Assembly (NCBI RefSeq): GCF_014775655.1
Contig: NZ_CP061274.1
Location: 1,178,001 to 1,242,000, forward strand
Length of the DNA stretch: 64,000 nt
Source: Clavibacter zhangzhiyongii
GTDB lineage: Bacteria > Actinomycetota > Actinomycetes > Actinomycetales > Microbacteriaceae
Direction: 5' to 3'
The translations under genes and the position numbers were made by a program. The notes under the pieces were generated by a model. That model saw only the letters and a list, made by a program, of their open reading frames with translations. It searched no databases and was not told the DNA's origin. Below, piece by piece: positions 46,723 through 56,719 of this stretch; position 1 is the stretch's first letter, and the number at the start of each line of letters is the position of its first letter.

Positions 46723-47384
46723 CCGCCGCGCCGATCCGCGTGGTCGTCGCGGACGACCACCCCGTCGTCCGCGCCGGCCTCGCCGCCCTCCTCTCCTCGG
46801 CGCCCGACCTGGCGGTCGTCGGCCAGGCTCCCGACGGCGCGGCGGCCGTCGCCCTCGCCGCGGCCGAGCGCCCCGACGTGGTGCTCATGGACCTCCGCAT
46901 GCCCGTCCTCGACGGCGTCGGCGCGACCGCGCGGATCCGCGAGGAGGCGCCGGGCGTGCGCGTCCTGGTGCTCACGACCTACGAGACCGACGCCAGCATC
47001 CTCACCGCCATCGAGGCCGGGGCGAGCGGCTACCTGCTGAAGGCGGCGCCCGAGGAGGAGATCCTCGCGGGCGTCCGGGCCGTGGCCCGCGGCGAGGTCG
47101 CGCTCGCACCGGCCATCGCGGCCTCGCTGGTCCGCCAGGTGGCGCGTCCGCCGGCCGCCCCGCCCGCGCCGGCGCCGACCCTCAGCCCGCGCGAGACCGA
47201 GGTCCTCGCGCTCGTCGCCGCCGGCCGCACGAACGCCCGCATCGCGCTCGAGCTGCACGTGACGCCCGCGACCGTGAAGACGCACCTGCTGCACGTGTTC
47301 GAGAAGCTCGGCGTCGGCGACCGGACCCGCGCGGTCACCCTCGCCATGGAGCTCGGCCTGCTGCCGCCCGCGACCCCGCGGTAA
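46719..47384 (+). CDS. NarL/LuxR-family response regulator
   Basis: 221 residues. Receiver domain with D-D-H-P and phospho-acceptor D in V-L-M-D-L-R-M-P (about residue 57), T-T-Y switch and lysine in G-Y-L-L-K. The LuxR helix-turn-helix (about 150-210) has L-S-P-R-E-T-E-V-L-A-L-V-A and V-T-P-A-T-V-K-T-H. It overlaps the kinase stop by four bases. It probably activates its own ABC-exporter operon. Confidence 0.96.
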   Translation: MTAAPIRVVVADDHPVVRAGLAALLSSAPDLAVVGQAPDGAAAVALAAAERPDVVLMDLRMPVLDGVGATARIREEAPGVRVLVLTTYETDASILTAIEAGASGYLLKAAPEEEILAGVRAVARGEVALAPAIAASLVRQVARPPAAPPAPAPTLSPRETEVLALVAAGRTNARIALELHVTPATVKTHLLHVFEKLGVGDRTRAVTLAMELGLLPPATPR

Positions 47385-51734: not shown

Positions 51735-52535
51735 TCAGCCGCGGTGGCGTCCGCGCGGGCGGCCGGACGCGGCCGGGGCGGGCGCGTCCACGCCCGGGTG
51801 CGTGGGGTCCGCGACCGCGGCCGCGGCGACGCCCGCCGACATCGCGTCGGAGTGCACGTGGTCGCCCTCGGCCTGCACGTCGTCCGCGGCCGACGCGGCG
51901 CGCTTGCGACGCGCCTGCACGGCGCCCGTGACGATCGTCACCGCCGCGTAGAGGAGGAGCGCCACCGCGGCGGCCGGGATGATCCAGCCGCGCGCCTGCC
52001 CGTTGACCGCCTGGTTCGCCCAGCCGACGAGCGGCACCGAGTACCAGACCTCGCCCTGGATCTGGGCGGCCGTCACGGGCTTCGAGTCCGGCTCCGCGTT
52101 GTTGTCGCCCTTGAAGGTGAAGGAGCGGGTGCCGTCGGACTCGGACGCGATCGCCGTGATGCGGTGGGTGATGACCGCGGGCTCGCCCGACCGGATCTGG
52201 TACGTCGCCACGTCGCCCACCTGCAGGTCGTCCGTGTCCACCGGGCGCACCACGATGAGCGTCCCGGGCGGCAGCCGCGGCTCCATCGACTGCGTGAGGA
52301 TCGTGAGCGGCACGGATCCGGAGACCTTCGGCACCACGAGCAGCACGGCCGCCAACCCGATGACGACGAGGAGGATCCCGACGCTCAGGCCCACGCCGGC
52401 GGAGCGCAGGAGCTGCGGCACCGCGCGTCGGGGGGTCGTGCCCTCCTCGAGCTCGACGGGGGCGAGGTCGTCGGCGGGGCGCGCGAGGGCGTCGGCGTGC
52501 CGGGCACGTGCGAGGCGGGGGAGGATGCGGGCCAT
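51735..52535 (-). CDS. sipW: SipW-type signal peptidase I
   Basis: 266 residues. Membrane spans at about 48-70 and near residues 180-205. The catalytic serine is in T-Q-S-M-E-P (Ser83) and the region expected to supply the second active-site residue holds His124 (V-I-T-H-R-I), not the lysine of typical bacterial enzymes; G-D-N-N follows at 143. This Ser-His arrangement marks the SipW/archaeal-eukaryotic class, which cleaves unusual signal peptides of TasA/CalY-type proteins. A Pro/Ala/Asp-rich tail follows. Last gene of the operon after three alternate-signal proteins. Confidence 0.92.
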   Translation of the reverse strand: MARILPRLARARHADALARPADDLAPVELEEGTTPRRAVPQLLRSAGVGLSVGILLVVIGLAAVLLVVPKVSGSVPLTILTQSMEPRLPPGTLIVVRPVDTDDLQVGDVATYQIRSGEPAVITHRITAIASESDGTRSFTFKGDNNAEPDSKPVTAAQIQGEVWYSVPLVGWANQAVNGQARGWIIPAAAVALLLYAAVTIVTGAVQARRKRAASAADDVQAEGDHVHSDAMSAGVAAAAVADPTHPGVDAPAPAASGRPRGRHRG

Positions 52536-52559: not shown

Positions 52560-53471
52560 TCAGCTGCAGCGGAAGCCGCGCGTGCCGGTGTTGGTGAACG
52601 CGACGACGGTGCCGCTCGCGACCTGGCGGACGCTCACGCCGTCCCGGAGGAGGTCGACCGTGACCTTCACGGTGCCGTCGGGGGCGAGGGTCGCGGGGAC
52701 CTGGTCCCGGGTGATGCCGGTCATGGGGTAGTAGCCCGTCGTCGTGGCGATGCGGGTCCCGTTCACCATGACGCCGTAGGACTCGGACTGCGCGGCCGTG
52801 GAGGCGTCCCACGACACGAAGACGTACCAGTCGCCGTCCGTCGGCGTGCAGCGGAAGCCGCCCGTGACGGTCGGGCCGGCGGCGGTCTGCGTGGCGGAGG
52901 TGGAGGCGCGGCCGGTCCAGGTGCCGGATCCCAGCAGCACGCCGAGCGTGCCCGTGACGGAGGCGGATCCGCTCGTGGGGAAGCCGGACGCGGTCGTGCG
53001 GACGCACCAGGTGGACTGGGCGCCGCCGGCGAGCGTGCCGGAGACCGTGGGCGGCGCGGCCCACGTGCCGGACACGGAGCCGGAGCCGACGGACGAGGTG
53101 GCGGAGCAGCTCGACGCGGTCGTGCTCCACGCGACGACCTTCGTGCCGCCGGCCAGCGCGCGGCCGGCGTCCGTGGACGCGGTCGCGGAGACGGTGCCGG
53201 TCCAGGGGCTCTGCACGGTGCCGGTGTTCCGCACGACGACCGTGGCGGTGCGGCTGGGGCTGCTCGAGCTCACGGCGCCGCCGAGCTGGTCGAAGCCCGT
53301 GCTCGTGACGGACACGGTGGCGGCGCGGACGGAGGATCCCGCCGAGACGCTCGAGGCCCACAGCGCGTGGACGGCGGTGCCGCCGCTCCCGAGGAGGATC
53401 ACGGTGAGGCCGACGAGGAGCGCGGCGTGCAGGCGGCCGACGGGGCGCCGCGTGCGGCGGGCGCGGCTCAC
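52560..53471 (-). CDS. Alternate-signal exported protein with Ser/Thr-rich repeats
   Basis: 303 residues from a GTG at 53471. Basic n-region, hydrophobic segment (about 15-30), then T-A-V-H-A-L-W, the ALW motif that marks SipW-processed proteins. The mature part is rich in Ser, Thr, Val and Gly with beta-strand periodicity, a Cys pair in the middle, and a C-terminal domain with FRCTPTDGDWYVFVSWD ending in F-R-C-S. Probably cell-surface, possibly filament-forming or adhesive. Start overlaps the upstream gene by four bases. Confidence 0.82.
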   Translation of the reverse strand: MSRARRTRRPVGRLHAALLVGLTVILLGSGGTAVHALWASSVSAGSSVRAATVSVTSTGFDQLGGAVSSSSPSRTATVVVRNTGTVQSPWTGTVSATASTDAGRALAGGTKVVAWSTTASSCSATSSVGSGSVSGTWAAPPTVSGTLAGGAQSTWCVRTTASGFPTSGSASVTGTLGVLLGSGTWTGRASTSATQTAAGPTVTGGFRCTPTDGDWYVFVSWDASTAAQSESYGVMVNGTRIATTTGYYPMTGITRDQVPATLAPDGTVKVTVDLLRDGVSVRQVASGTVVAFTNTGTRGFRCS

Positions 53472-54070
53472 GGGGTGACCTGCGTGCCGACGACGTCGAA
53501 CGCGAGCTGCGCGGTGGATCCCTGCACGGACTGCGGCGCGTCCTTGTCGAGGACGACCTCGGTGCAGACGACCGACGAGGCGCCGGGCTGGATGCGGGCG
53601 AACCCGCTGGGCGTGTGCAGCGCGCCGGGACGGCCGGAGAAGGTCGTGGCGCCGTGCACGCAGTCGGCCGTCGTCGCGACGGGTCCGAGGCGCAGCGACA
53701 GCTCGCCGGGGAAGGCGCTGTTCGACGAGGTGCCTCGCGTGGAGATGGCCACGTCCAAGGCTACCGTGCCGGTGTTCTTCGCGGTGAAGGCCCCGACGAT
53801 CCCCTGGCCGGGGAGGAGCTGCGTCGCGTCGAGGGCGGCCTGCTGGGTGATGACGAGTCCGCTCGACCCGCTGGCGACGCTCGATGTCTGGGCGCTCGCG
53901 GTGCCGTTCCAGAGGGCGTAGCTGCCGCCGGTGGCGGCGAGGGAGGCGACGACGACCGCGGTGAGGAGGCCGGTGGTGAGCCACGCGGCGCGCAGGGGGC
54001 TGCGGCGGGCGGGACGGGCGGAGCGGCGGCCGTGAGCGGGACGCGCGGCGGGTGCCTGCCTCGTGCTCAT
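53468..54070 (-). CDS. Alternate-signal exported protein (TasA/CalY-like)
   Basis: 200 residues. Arginine-rich N-terminus (1-28), hydrophobic segment (about 30-47), then S-Y-A-L-W-N at residues 50-55, the alternate signal motif. The mature domain has TasA/camelysin-like spacing: an early conserved A-x-N-T-G-T-V-A-L-D-V-A-I strand and VVCTEVVLDKDAPQS near the end. Likely secreted through SipW cleavage and displayed on the cell surface. Second gene of the operon. Confidence 0.85.
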   Translation of the reverse strand: MSTRQAPAARPAHGRRSARPARRSPLRAAWLTTGLLTAVVVASLAATGGSYALWNGTASAQTSSVASGSSGLVITQQAALDATQLLPGQGIVGAFTAKNTGTVALDVAISTRGTSSNSAFPGELSLRLGPVATTADCVHGATTFSGRPGALHTPSGFARIQPGASSVVCTEVVLDKDAPQSVQGSTAQLAFDVVGTQVTP

Positions 54071-54165: not shown

Positions 54166-54714
54166 CTAGATCGCGCGCTGCGTGAGCGTGAAGGCGAGCT
54201 TGTCGAAGGAGAGGGTGCCGTTCTGGCCGGTGGTCGCGGTCGAGGGGAACGTGACCGTGAGGACCACGTTGACCTTGGAGGCGGCCGTCGAGGGCTTGAC
54301 CGTGAACGTGTTGGCCGCGGAGCCGGCGGTGATGCTGGCGTCGGTCGAGGTCACGTCGAGCTTGGTGGTGACGGCGGCCTTGAGCGCCGCGTCGCCGCTG
54401 ATGGAGAGGGGGTTGTACGTGAGGTCGGCGGCCAGCGAGTCGCCGGTCGCGGTGACCGTGAGGGCGCTCTTGTACTGGAGGACGTTGCCGGGGACGATGC
54501 GGTACGTCGCGGGGTCGACGACCTTGGGGGCGCTCGGGTTGGTGATGTCGGTCCAGACGCCCGTGGTGTCGGCGGCGAGGGCCAGGTTGCCCGCGGAGAC
54601 GCTCGAGGCGGCGACCGTCGCGTTGGCGTTCCACAGCGCGAAGCTGCCGGCGCCGCCGAGGAGGAGGACGATTCCAGCGGCACCTGCGACGGCGCCGGAG
54701 ACGATCTTGTTCAT
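54166..54714 (-). CDS. Alternate-signal exported protein, first and probably major (TasA/CalY-like)
   Basis: 182 residues. Short hydrophobic signal region (4-22) then S-F-A-L-W-N at 24-29, the SipW-type motif. Mature region: AGNLALAADTTGVWTD, GNVLQYKSALTVTATGDSLAADLTY and a C-terminal beta strand, pattern typical of TasA/camelysin-like fibre proteins and the RER_14450-type family of actinobacteria. Start has AGGAAACCCC. First gene of a four-gene operon with two more exported proteins and sipW; the hairpin after it fits a major structural subunit. Confidence 0.88.
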   Translation of the reverse strand: MNKIVSGAVAGAAGIVLLLGGAGSFALWNANATVAASSVSAGNLALAADTTGVWTDITNPSAPKVVDPATYRIVPGNVLQYKSALTVTATGDSLAADLTYNPLSISGDAALKAAVTTKLDVTSTDASITAGSAANTFTVKPSTAASKVNVVLTVTFPSTATTGQNGTLSFDKLAFTLTQRAI

Positions 54715-54837
54715 GGGGTTTCCTGTTCTCTCACGCGGTGTGCCGCGCATGTTCGTGGGGGAGGCGGCGGGTGGGGTCCTGCCGGTCGTCTCCGGTGCTC
54801 CGCTGGCGCCTGGTCGGCGCTCCTGCGGTCTCGATCC

Positions 54838-54858
54838 GGTGTTCCTTCGACGAACACC
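54838..54858. promoter_or_regulatory. Inverted repeat GGTGTTC-N7-GAACACC
   Basis: Perfect 7-bp arms in a 21-bp site, 124 bases before the first exported-protein start. Size and symmetry fit a repressor or activator dimer of the GntR, LacI or TetR type. No cognate regulator can be named. Confidence 0.55.
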
Positions 54859-54873
54859 ACTCTGACGGGGCGG

Positions 54874-54952
54874 CCTCAAGCCACCCGCTGGGCGACCGCA
54901 AGTCCGGCCGAGCTTTGCCGCAAGCCCGTCCCGGGATCCGCTCAAGCCCCCG
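54874..54952 (-). repeat. Four CAAG(C/T)C boxes at exact 22-bp period
   Basis: CAAG starts at 54877, 54899, 54921 and 54943. On the strand reading toward the sipW operon the boxes are GGCTTGAGG, GACTTGCGG, GGCTTGCGG and GGCTTGAGC. Equal phasing by two DNA turns would place them on one face. Tandem direct repeats like this are the usual target of response regulators or LytTR-type activators. Confidence 0.7.
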
Positions 54953-55060
54953 GGATCCCGTGCCGCGAGGCCGGTCGGCGCCGGCGCGGCGTCCTCGCAC
55001 GCCGGCCGGTCTAGGCTCAGGCCACGACGTCCTCCGACGGCGGACACGGGAGGGGAGCGC

Positions 55061-56719
55061 ATGACGACTCCCGCCCGCCCGCCCCGGTCGGCCCTGTCCG
55101 CGCTCGACGCGCAGCGCCGTCGCGGCTCGGCCCGCGCGCAGGTGCCGTTCCTCCTCAGCTGCGCGGTCGTCGCGGTCATCGTGGCCGTCGTCGAGCCGGA
55201 GGTCCACGCCGATCCGTTCTACCTGGGCGCCCTCGCCCTGGTCGGCGCCGTCTCCCTGCTCTGCGTCGTGCTCGCGATGAGCCGGATCCCGTCGGGCGTC
55301 CTCATGGTCGTGCCCGCCGTCGACCTGCTCGCGGTCGCGGCCCTCCGCGACGCGACCGCCGAGACCTTCCCCGCGTCGGCCCTGCTCGTGATCTTCCCGC
55401 TGCTCTGGCTGGTGTTCGCGTTCCCGTCCGGCGGCGTCGCCGTCGCCGTGGCGGGCGCCCTGGTCATCAGCCTCTTCCCGGTGATCCGCGACGGCGGGCT
55501 GCCCGCGTCCTCCACGGCGTGGGCCGACCTCCTCGGCGCGCCCCTCCTCACCGCGCTCCTGGTGGCGGCGGCCGCGCAGGCGGCCGCGACGCAGCGCACC
55601 GACCGGCGCGAGCTCGCCGAGGCGACCGAGACCCAGGCGCGGCTCCTCGTGGAGTCGCGCGAGCAGACGGCGACCTTCCGCGACGTGGCCGACGCGCTCG
55701 ACGTCGGGATCGTCTTCTTCGACGCGGACGACCGGCCCGTGCTCCGCAACGCCGCCGTCCGCTCGCTGCTGGAGCTCGCGGGCTACGACCCCGCGACGGG
55801 CCGGGCGTCGCACGTGTACGGATCCGACCGCGTCACGCCGGTCGCCCGCGACGGGCGAATCCTGATGGAGGCGGTGTACGCCGACAAGGTGCACGGGCCC
55901 GTCTACTGGGTGGGGGAGCCGGGCGACCAGCGCGCCCTCGTGCTCTCCGTGCGGGCCATCGGGCGCCGCGGGGGGCAGCGCACCGGCACCGTGCTCGGCG
56001 CCTACGACGTCACCGACCTCGCGCAGGCCGTCCAGGTGCGCGACGAGTTCCTGGCCACCGTCTCGCACGAGCTGCGCACGCCGCTCACGAGCATCGTCGG
56101 CTACCTCGACCTGCTCGACGAGCTGCACGATCCCGCGCACCTGGGCATCGCGGCCGAGCTCGCGGTCATCCAGCGGAACGTCGAGCAGCTGTCGGTCATC
56201 ATCGGCTCGCTCCTCGCGGGAGCGGACCACGCGCCCGCGCTCCAGCGCGCATCCGTCGACCTCTCGGCGCTCGTCGAGGACGCGGCGGCCGGCGCCGCCG
56301 CGCGCGCCGCCGAGCGCGGGCTGGCGCTCGGCACCCGCATCGCCCCGGGCATCGTGCTCGACGGCGACGCCGACCGGCTCGCGCAGGTCGTCGAGGCCCT
56401 GCTCTCCAACGCCCTCGCCTTCACGCCGGCCGGCCGGATCGACGTGGTGCTCGAGCGCGAGGGCGACGAGGCCGTCCTCTCCGTCGCCGACACCGGCGTC
56501 GGCGTCAGCGAGGAGGACCAGCGGCACGTGTTCGACCGCTTCTTCCGCGCCCGCTCAGCCCGCGACGGCGCCGTCCCTGGCCTCGGCCTCGGCCTCTCGA
56601 TCGCCGAGCGCACCGTCACCGCGCACGGCGGATCCGTCCGCATCTCGAGCCGCCTCGGGCACGGCACGCGCATGGTCGTGGCCCTGCCGATGGGATCGCC
56701 CCACTACCCCTCCCCATAG
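55061..56719 (+). CDS. Orphan sensor histidine kinase with PAS-like domain
   Basis: 552 residues. About six N-terminal spans (25-180), then a PAS-like segment (about 200-320) containing F-R-D-V-A-D-A-L-D-V-G-I-V-F-F-D and a Y-D-V-T-D-L end. HisKA: F-L-A-T-V-S-H-E-L-R-T-P-L-T-S with the phospho-histidine near 335. HATPase: N-A-L-A-F-T, A-D-T-G-V-G-V, P-G-L-G-L-G-L-S. No response-regulator gene is adjacent. It faces the sipW operon across the repeat-bearing region. Confidence 0.93.
   Translation: MTTPARPPRSALSALDAQRRRGSARAQVPFLLSCAVVAVIVAVVEPEVHADPFYLGALALVGAVSLLCVVLAMSRIPSGVLMVVPAVDLLAVAALRDATAETFPASALLVIFPLLWLVFAFPSGGVAVAVAGALVISLFPVIRDGGLPASSTAWADLLGAPLLTALLVAAAAQAAATQRTDRRELAEATETQARLLVESREQTATFRDVADALDVGIVFFDADDRPVLRNAAVRSLLELAGYDPATGRASHVYGSDRVTPVARDGRILMEAVYADKVHGPVYWVGEPGDQRALVLSVRAIGRRGGQRTGTVLGAYDVTDLAQAVQVRDEFLATVSHELRTPLTSIVGYLDLLDELHDPAHLGIAAELAVIQRNVEQLSVIIGSLLAGADHAPALQRASVDLSALVEDAAAGAAARAAERGLALGTRIAPGIVLDGDADRLAQVVEALLSNALAFTPAGRIDVVLEREGDEAVLSVADTGVGVSEEDQRHVFDRFFRARSARDGAVPGLGLGLSIAERTVTAHGGSVRISSRLGHGTRMVVALPMGSPHYPSP

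What the first reader, a model, noticed from the sequence alone, without database searches (positions are those of the whole stretch)
54874..54952. Four CAAG(C/T)C boxes at an exact 22-bp period ahead of the sipW operon
CAAG(C/T)C starts at 54877, 54899, 54921 and 54943. Three consecutive gaps of exactly 22 bases, two DNA turns, are very unlikely by chance in non-coding DNA. Read toward the exported-protein operon they are GGCTTG(A/C)G(G/C)-like boxes. Direct repeats at 21-23 bp are typical for OmpR-, LytTR- or NarL-type activators. Next to them is an orphan histidine kinase whose regulator is missing here.
Basis: partly seen in the sequence, partly recalled or inferred. Interest (0 to 1): 0.75.

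Follow-up and report, generated by a model that had tools for sequence, protein, structure and literature searches.

The report
Regulator-binding array before sipW operon
A row of four near-identical short DNA boxes, exactly two helix turns apart, is kept in all 18 Clavibacter genomes examined and is most likely the docking strip where a distantly encoded switch protein turns on a surface-protein export operon; it is a well-supported example of a known kind of switch, not a new kind of biology.

Summary
Four CAAG(C/T)C boxes start at 54877, 54899, 54921 and 54943. No other place in the 3.10-Mb genome matches two such boxes at this spacing. All 18 genus genomes (Clavibacter) keep all four CTTG cores with no indel. 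The array is at a fixed distance from the SipW/camelysin operon (165-167 bp to the ATG) and a variable distance (51-93 bp) from the kinase promoter, so it belongs to the sipW-side promoter.

The "missing" regulator has a good candidate: the only OmpR-type response regulator of the genome without a same-strand kinase beside it, 826 kb away. Relatives of it lie in or beside sipW operons in ten loci of three other genera. There, TTGMG direct repeats at 11 bp lie before the first SipW-dependent gene in 8 of 10 loci, against 0 of 23 loci with no linked regulator seen. In one locus the operon order matches Clavibacter and the divergent gene is the regulator instead of the kinase.

Best reading: a tandem OmpR/PhoB-type operator, in a 22-bp-only variant of the usual 11-bp layout, activating the exported-protein operon. 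Binding, phosphotransfer, sign and start site are inferred, not shown. LytTR and NarL readings are disfavoured.

The parts
54941..54946 (-). box 1, CTTGAG (its CAAG starts at 54943)
   Evidence: CTTGAG in 18 of 18 genomes
54919..54924 (-). box 2, CTTGCG
   Evidence: CTTG in 18 of 18; CTTGCG in 17, CTTGAG in L007
54897..54902 (-). box 3, CTTGCG
   Evidence: CTTG in 18 of 18; CTTGCG in 17, CTTGCA in L007
54875..54880 (-). box 4, CTTGAG, nearest the operon
   Evidence: CTTGAG in 18 of 18
54859..54864 (-). candidate -10 element CAGAGT inside the invariant GTCAGAGTG, 15 nt downstream of the TTG of box 4
   Evidence: GTCAGAGTG in 18 of 18 at 14 bp from box 4; role inferred
54166..54714 (-). first gene of the operon: SipW-dependent (alternate-type signal peptide) protein
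   Evidence: NCBIfam TIGR04089, 174.3 bits, cut-off 60
53468..54070 (-). camelysin-like (Peptidase_M73) protein; start codon is my choice
   Evidence: Pfam PF12389, 29.2 bits, cut-off 22.5
52560..53360 (-). third gene, no family match; start codon is my choice
51735..52535 (-). SipW-type signal peptidase I
   Evidence: TIGR02228, 83.4 bits, cut-off 51.85; the SipW model NF046067 matches below its cut-off (76.4 of 190)
55061..56719 (+). divergent histidine kinase without an adjacent regulator
   Evidence: HisKA and HATPase_c; no receiver match beside it
55012..55017 (+). -10 element TAGGCT of the kinase promoter (inferred)
   Evidence: AGCCTAG found in all 18; its distance to box 1 varies from 51 to 93 bp

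Best explanation
The array is a tandem operator for an OmpR/PhoB-type response regulator that activates the SipW/camelysin-type exported-protein operon. The regulator is most likely the OmpR-type protein at G000:C1:405684-406595, minus strand (called L057 here), 826 kb from the array. It would be phosphorylated by the divergent kinase next to the array (possibly also by two related kinases that have no regulator beside them on their strand), bind as dimers stacked on one face of the DNA with one strong CTTG(A/C)GG contact per dimer every 22 bp, and recruit RNA polymerase to a promoter with a CAGAGT -10 just downstream of box 4. Shown: the boxes, their spacing, conservation, phasing to the operon side, and the association of this regulator type and box with sipW operons in other genera. 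Inferred: binding, phosphotransfer, activation rather than repression, and the start site.
For: (1) Array fixed in 18 of 18 genomes; distance to the operon ATG 165-167, to the kinase -10 51-93 bp. (2) Of 30 receiver proteins 8 are OmpR-type (Trans_reg_C); 7 of these have a same-strand HATPase match within about 2 kb, only L057 has none. (3) L057-type regulators lie within about 5 kb of SipW-dependent genes in 10 loci of three other genera; in L264 a kinase is divergent from the sipW operon, in L307 the operon order is as in Clavibacter and the divergent gene is the regulator. (4) TTGMG-N6-TTGMG lies upstream of the first SipW-dependent gene in 8 of these 10 loci, shuffle mean 0.0175, maximum 1 in 2000; 0 of 23 in loci with no linked regulator seen. 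Without the Clavibacter motif, TTGAG at 11 bp was the top 5-mer/spacing (5 of 10; 0 of 23). (5) A matrix from 17 half-sites of the other genera ranks the four Clavibacter boxes first to fourth in the intergenic region, both strands (training sites were chosen with the TTGMG core, so partly circular). (6) In a quick tree the seven Clavibacter L057 proteins used join 9 of the 10 sipW-linked regulators and three others (SH-aLRT 90). (7) 17 of 18 genus genomes have L057. (8) ArcA, of the same family, uses direct repeats at 11 and 22 bp (PMC3798270, passages read).
Against: No binding or expression data. Clavibacter has no 11-bp pair of these boxes in the own genome (3 of 18 genus genomes have one site each), and the positions midway between boxes score as background with the matrix, so the second subunit of each dimer has no recognisable site. 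Two genomes of genus g93 (G111, G173) have a regulator of the same clade but no 11- or 22-bp pair before the SipW-dependent gene examined. A looser self-similarity test (7-mers, one mismatch) did not single out 11 bp: 8 of 10 linked loci, but 23, 29 and 41 bp reached 8 of 10 too; and among 4-mers CCCG at 26 bp tied with TGAG, TTGA and CTTG at 11 bp. L057 lies convergent to a different kinase, HK2, which could be its partner instead. In G004 (620 contigs) L057 was not found although the array is present. No box is seen upstream of L057. The divergent kinase of L264 is only 28.8% identical to the window kinase.
Confidence: 0.72

Rival explanations
1. The array is bound by a response regulator with its own kinase or by a non-two-component regulator (for example a MerR-, BldC- or LytTR-like protein), and the kinase beside it is a bystander.
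For: No binding data; the second half-sites at 11 bp are unrecognisable in Clavibacter; DNA-binding proteins without a receiver domain were not surveyed.
Against: Box and L057-type regulator co-occur at sipW loci of three other genera, and L057 is the only OmpR-type regulator without a same-strand kinase neighbour. No LytTR domain among the 30 receiver proteins.
Confidence: 0.2
2. The array is an operator for the kinase gene (autoregulation) rather than for the sipW operon.
For: It lies between the two divergent genes.
Against: Spacing to the kinase promoter varies by 42 bp among genomes while spacing to the operon side is fixed to within 2 bp; invariant columns are 9 of the 70 on the kinase side of the array against 52 of 88 in the array.
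Confidence: 0.05
3. The boxes repress the operon rather than activate it (not exclusive of the same regulator and kinase).
For: Box 4 lies close to or within the promoter; OmpR-type regulators can repress.
Against: The candidate promoter has no good -35, while many of the unlinked loci show a TTGTCC-like -35 (read by eye); this fits activator dependence but is indirect.
Confidence: 0.12
4. A chance or neutral 22-bp tandem repeat.
For: 22-bp tandem repeats with CTTG units exist in many unrelated genomes.
Against: Spacers are not repeated here (shift identity 0.51), CTTG cores are invariant in 18 of 18 genomes, and shuffles never give three boxes.
Confidence: 0.01

Closest known systems
OmpR/PhoB-family direct-repeat operators (E. 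coli ArcA, PhoB)
   Same: Head-to-tail direct repeats on one helical face, several elements in a row, 22-bp spacing among the arrangements reported for ArcA (PMC3798270, abstract and passages read); for PhoB a 7-bp core plus 4 bp per 11-bp repeat (PMC2648988, passages read).
   Different: ArcA sites have a core pair at 11 bp; the Clavibacter array has strong boxes only every 22 bp. The box CTTG(A/C)GG differs from the PhoB core CTGTCAT quoted in PMC2648988.
BsaR/BsaS control of the sipW-bsaA operon in Clostridium perfringens
   Same: A two-component system encoded with a sipW operon; the regulator binds the sipW promoter and is required for its expression (PMC7395162, passages read).
   Different: Other phylum; whether BsaR is OmpR-type was not checked here; in Clavibacter the proposed regulator is encoded 826 kb away and only the kinase is adjacent.
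Bacillus subtilis tapA-sipW-tasA operon
   Same: SipW signal peptidase with SipW-dependent exported/matrix proteins (recalled).
   Different: Regulated by SinR and other factors (recalled); no OmpR-type array there that I know of.

Membership tests
OmpR/PhoB-type tandem operator | Direct (not inverted) repeats of one short core | tested here: met
OmpR/PhoB-type tandem operator | Centre-to-centre spacing of 11 bp or a multiple | tested here: met
   22 bp in 18 of 18 genomes; 11 bp in 8 of 10 regulator-linked loci of other genera
OmpR/PhoB-type tandem operator | Core pair of recognisable half-sites at 11 bp | tested here: not met
   In Clavibacter midway positions score as background and the 11-bp pair pattern is absent from G000; present in 8 of 10 loci of the other genera
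OmpR/PhoB-type tandem operator | A cognate regulator with receiver and Trans_reg_C domains | tested here: inconclusive
   The candidate L262:6685-7596:- has both domains; that it is the cognate one is inferred
OmpR/PhoB-type tandem operator | Bound by the phosphorylated regulator | not testable with these tools
   needs footprinting
LytTR operator | A LytTR-domain response regulator in the genome | tested here: not met
   0 of 30 receiver proteins carry a LytTR match; LytTR proteins without a receiver were not searched
NarL/FixJ operator | Inverted heptamer arrangement (recalled) | tested here: not met
   Repeats are direct
22-bp minisatellite | Whole unit repeated, spacer included | tested here: not met
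   shift-22 identity 0.51 in L156; the spacers of the four units differ

The most novel reading that the evidence does not exclude
Clavibacter has re-spaced an ancestral 11-bp operator into a four-unit, 22-bp-only array, so that one displaced regulator, fed by up to three kinases without adjacent partners, assembles cooperatively as four stacked dimers and makes surface-fibre production an all-or-none (possibly bistable) switch at a single promoter.
Probability: 0.18. Interest if true: 0.65.

Novelty: new variant of a known kind. Interest (0 to 1): 0.52.

Why it matters
It names a specific regulator, kinase and operator for a sipW-type export operon in this actinobacterial family, for which my searches of the held library found no paper: SipW with Clavibacter gave 3 papers, none on a Clavibacter sipW operon by title and start of abstract; SipW with Microbacterium 0; camelysin with Clavibacter 0; 'alternate-type signal peptide' 0. 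It turns an orphan kinase and an orphan regulator into one testable circuit, and the 11-bp and 22-bp layouts in sister genera give a natural test of how far OmpR-type operators can be re-spaced.

Tried and rejected
Tested and set aside: (a) Minisatellite origin. (b) A conserved palindromic operator GGTGTTC..GAACACC downstream of box 4: present in the window and a few relatives, while most of the 18 read otherwise, for example GATGCATGTCGAAGGAACACC. (c) TACGAC as the -10: not conserved across the 18 genomes. (d) Weak half-sites midway between boxes (AGCTCGG, CCAGCGG): partly conserved but background by the matrix. (e) A wider Clavibacter regulon with 11-bp pairs: 3 of 18 genomes have one site each, at unlike places. 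(f) Boxes upstream of L057 or of the second kinase HK2: none seen by eye. (g) An Rfam element: one hit below its cut-off, on the other strand.

Selection: the 10 regulator-linked loci were chosen by reading which printed hits lay close together; both printed lists were truncated. The 23 unlinked loci are L081-L103, the best hits outside the genus, so not a random sample. 'No linked regulator' rests on their 1.5-kb flanks and the printed rows; for G228 and G128 a weak hit (E about 1e-25) is counted there but its place was not printed. G160, G108, G132, G111 and G173 do have a related regulator elsewhere in the genome. TTGMG-N6-TTGMG became the test pattern after I had seen it in L307, one of the 10. 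Over all 526 kb of loci scanned the pair at 11 bp was the most frequent spacing (12), but 33 bp gave 10 and 9 and 27 bp gave 9 each. One search's gene filter missed L094, L100 and L307; one search includes them. The output was cut.

Full report
OBSERVATION. CAAGYC-N16-CAAGYC occurs in the 3,098,336-bp genome only as the three overlapping pairs of this array, and the reversed pattern never. The minus-strand form CTTGMG-N16-CTTGMG also gives three hits, all here, with one control hit. Shuffling the 346-bp intergenic stretch 20,000 times keeping dinucleotides gave a two-box match twice and never three or four boxes.

CONSERVATION. All 18 genomes held of the genus contain the region. One of them, G013, has a contig of the same length (1,528,875) as the contig of Clavibacter sp. 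VKM Ac-2873 found, so I take the genus to be Clavibacter. In an alignment oriented toward the operon, CTTG is invariant in all four boxes in 18 of 18 genomes, with exactly 22 bp between boxes. The one departure from CTTG(A/C)G is CTTGCA in box 3 of L007. 52 of 88 array columns are invariant, against 9 of the 70 columns on the kinase side of the array. From box 4 the distance to the invariant GTCAGAGTG is 14 bp in all 18 and to the operon ATG 165-167 bp, while the distance from box 1 to the kinase -10 (AGCCTAG) runs from 51 to 93 bp. The array is therefore phased to the sipW-side promoter. A three-box search with the stricter CAAGYC found it in 13 of 60 genomes: 13 of the 18 of this genus and 0 of 42 from other genera.

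NOT A MINISATELLITE. The stretches printed are mostly whole-unit 22-bp tandem repeats, many in Bacteroidales, with shift-22 identity mostly above 0.65 though a few are as low as 0.49-0.58. The Clavibacter array (L156) has 0.51; only its boxes repeat.

GENES. The operon read from the array encodes a SipW-dependent protein (TIGR04089), a camelysin-like protein (PF12389), an unassigned protein and a SipW-type signal peptidase. The divergent gene is a HisKA/HATPase kinase followed by a BCCT transporter, with no response regulator beside it.

THE MISSING REGULATOR. The genome has 30 receiver-domain matches. By Pfam, 8 are OmpR-type (Trans_reg_C), 17 GerE/NarL-type, 1 ANTAR, 2 with an IclR-like or (below cut-off) DpiA-like HTH, 1 with only a sigma-70 region 4-like match and 1 without an output match; none is LytTR. 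Comparing positions with the 32 HATPase matches, 7 of the 8 OmpR-type regulators have a same-strand HATPase match within about 2 kb; the exception is L057, at G000:C1:405684-406595, minus strand, 826 kb from the window kinase. Its nearest kinase, HK2, is convergent, about 1.2 kb away, and is 35.7% identical to the window kinase. In G161 and G164, kinases 44% and 43% identical to the window kinase lie beside an OmpR-type regulator whose C-terminal part (all that the first loci held) matches L057 best among the 30 Clavibacter receiver loci: about 50% identity, next best L059 at 43-45%. L057 is found in 17 of 18 genus genomes; the miss is G004, a 620-contig draft.

LINK TO sipW IN OTHER GENERA. 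In 299 family genomes, regulators similar to L057 occur in 147 (E up to 1e-25, which includes distant members) and the SipW-dependent protein in 120. In ten loci of three genera (g2, g3, g18) the two lie within about 5 kb of each other, with a SipW gene. In L264 a kinase is divergent from the sipW operon and the regulator lies last on the operon's strand. In L307 the order SipW-dependent gene, M73 protein, SipW is that of Clavibacter, and the divergent gene is the regulator where Clavibacter has the kinase. A quick maximum-likelihood tree of 56 regulators (SH-aLRT only) puts the seven Clavibacter proteins used in one group with nine of the ten sipW-linked regulators plus three others (support 90), apart from a group of 27 (support 99) that includes regulators convergent to HK2-like kinases (L309, L310). 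The L264 regulator falls outside both.

THE SAME BOX. Upstream (400 bp) of the first SipW-dependent gene, TTGMG-N6-TTGMG, an 11-bp direct repeat, is present in 8 of the 10 linked loci; shuffles gave a mean of 0.0175 loci and a maximum of 1 in 2000 trials, and 0 of 23 unlinked loci have it. In a count not using the Clavibacter motif, the top 5-mer/spacing in the linked set is TTGAG at 11 bp (5 of 10; 0 of 23); among 4-mers CCCG at 26 bp ties with the TTGAG parts at 11 bp, and a looser 7-mer test does not single out 11 bp. The two misses, L300 and L301, carry CTTGCG followed by CTTGAT 22 or 23 bp on (spacing counted by eye). A matrix built from 17 half-sites of other genera ranks the four Clavibacter boxes first to fourth of all positions in the intergenic stretch on both strands, but gives background scores to the midway positions. 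The training sites were picked with the TTGMG core, so this test is partly circular. Two genomes of genus g93 have a same-clade regulator but no 11- or 22-bp pair before the SipW-dependent gene examined.

MECHANISM. Direct repeats at 11 bp are usual for OmpR/PhoB-type regulators (recalled); ArcA sites often hold extra repeats at 11 or 22 bp (PMC3798270, abstract and passages), and each PhoB repeat is a 7-bp core plus 4 bp (PMC2648988, passages). CTTG(A/C)GG could be such a 7-bp core. I propose four dimers, one strong contact each, stacked upstream of a promoter whose -10 is CAGAGT (invariant). The other candidate -10, TACGAC, is not conserved. Activation is the more likely sign because the promoter lacks a good -35, but this is weak. 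A precedent for two-component control of a sipW operon is BsaR/BsaS in Clostridium perfringens (PMC7395162, passages).

VERDICT. The regulator is probably L057; the kinase partnership is plausible but less certain (about 0.55). It is a variant of a known kind of operator.

Noticed in passing
54715-54858, minus strand (operon leader): The 144-bp stretch between the promoter and the first ATG is itself highly conserved (80 of 144 columns invariant over 18 genomes) with possible hairpins (CGGCGGG..CCCGCCG, CGCGG..CCGCG; consensus fold -34.6 kcal/mol, no control run). No Rfam match above threshold.
   Followed up: partly
L081-L103, 260 bp upstream of the SipW-dependent genes: Many of the loci without a linked regulator share a different promoter: a TTGTCC-like -35, a GTCC..GGAC inverted repeat around the spacer and often a CCCC..GGGG element upstream (by eye). 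This suggests another regulator of SipW-dependent genes.
   Followed up: no
G000:C1:402834-404519 (+), 761405-761755 (-), and the window kinase: Three related kinases have no receiver gene beside them on their strand and coexist with a single unpaired OmpR-type regulator; a many-to-one circuit is possible.
   Followed up: partly
L137, L143, L147, L169 (Bacteroides sp. 51): One genome carries several separate 22-bp CTTGAG arrays on different scaffolds, these four beginning after a similar ATAAAATGAAA sequence.
   Followed up: no
L302, L303, L304, upstream of the SipW-dependent gene: Repeated AACCCGAAA-like units in the leader; CCCGA recurs at 26 bp in 4 of the 10 linked loci.
   Followed up: no
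46740-47075, plus strand: A NarL-type regulator with an adjacent kinase match lies in the window, about 8 kb from the array; I did not look for a link to the boxes.
   Followed up: no
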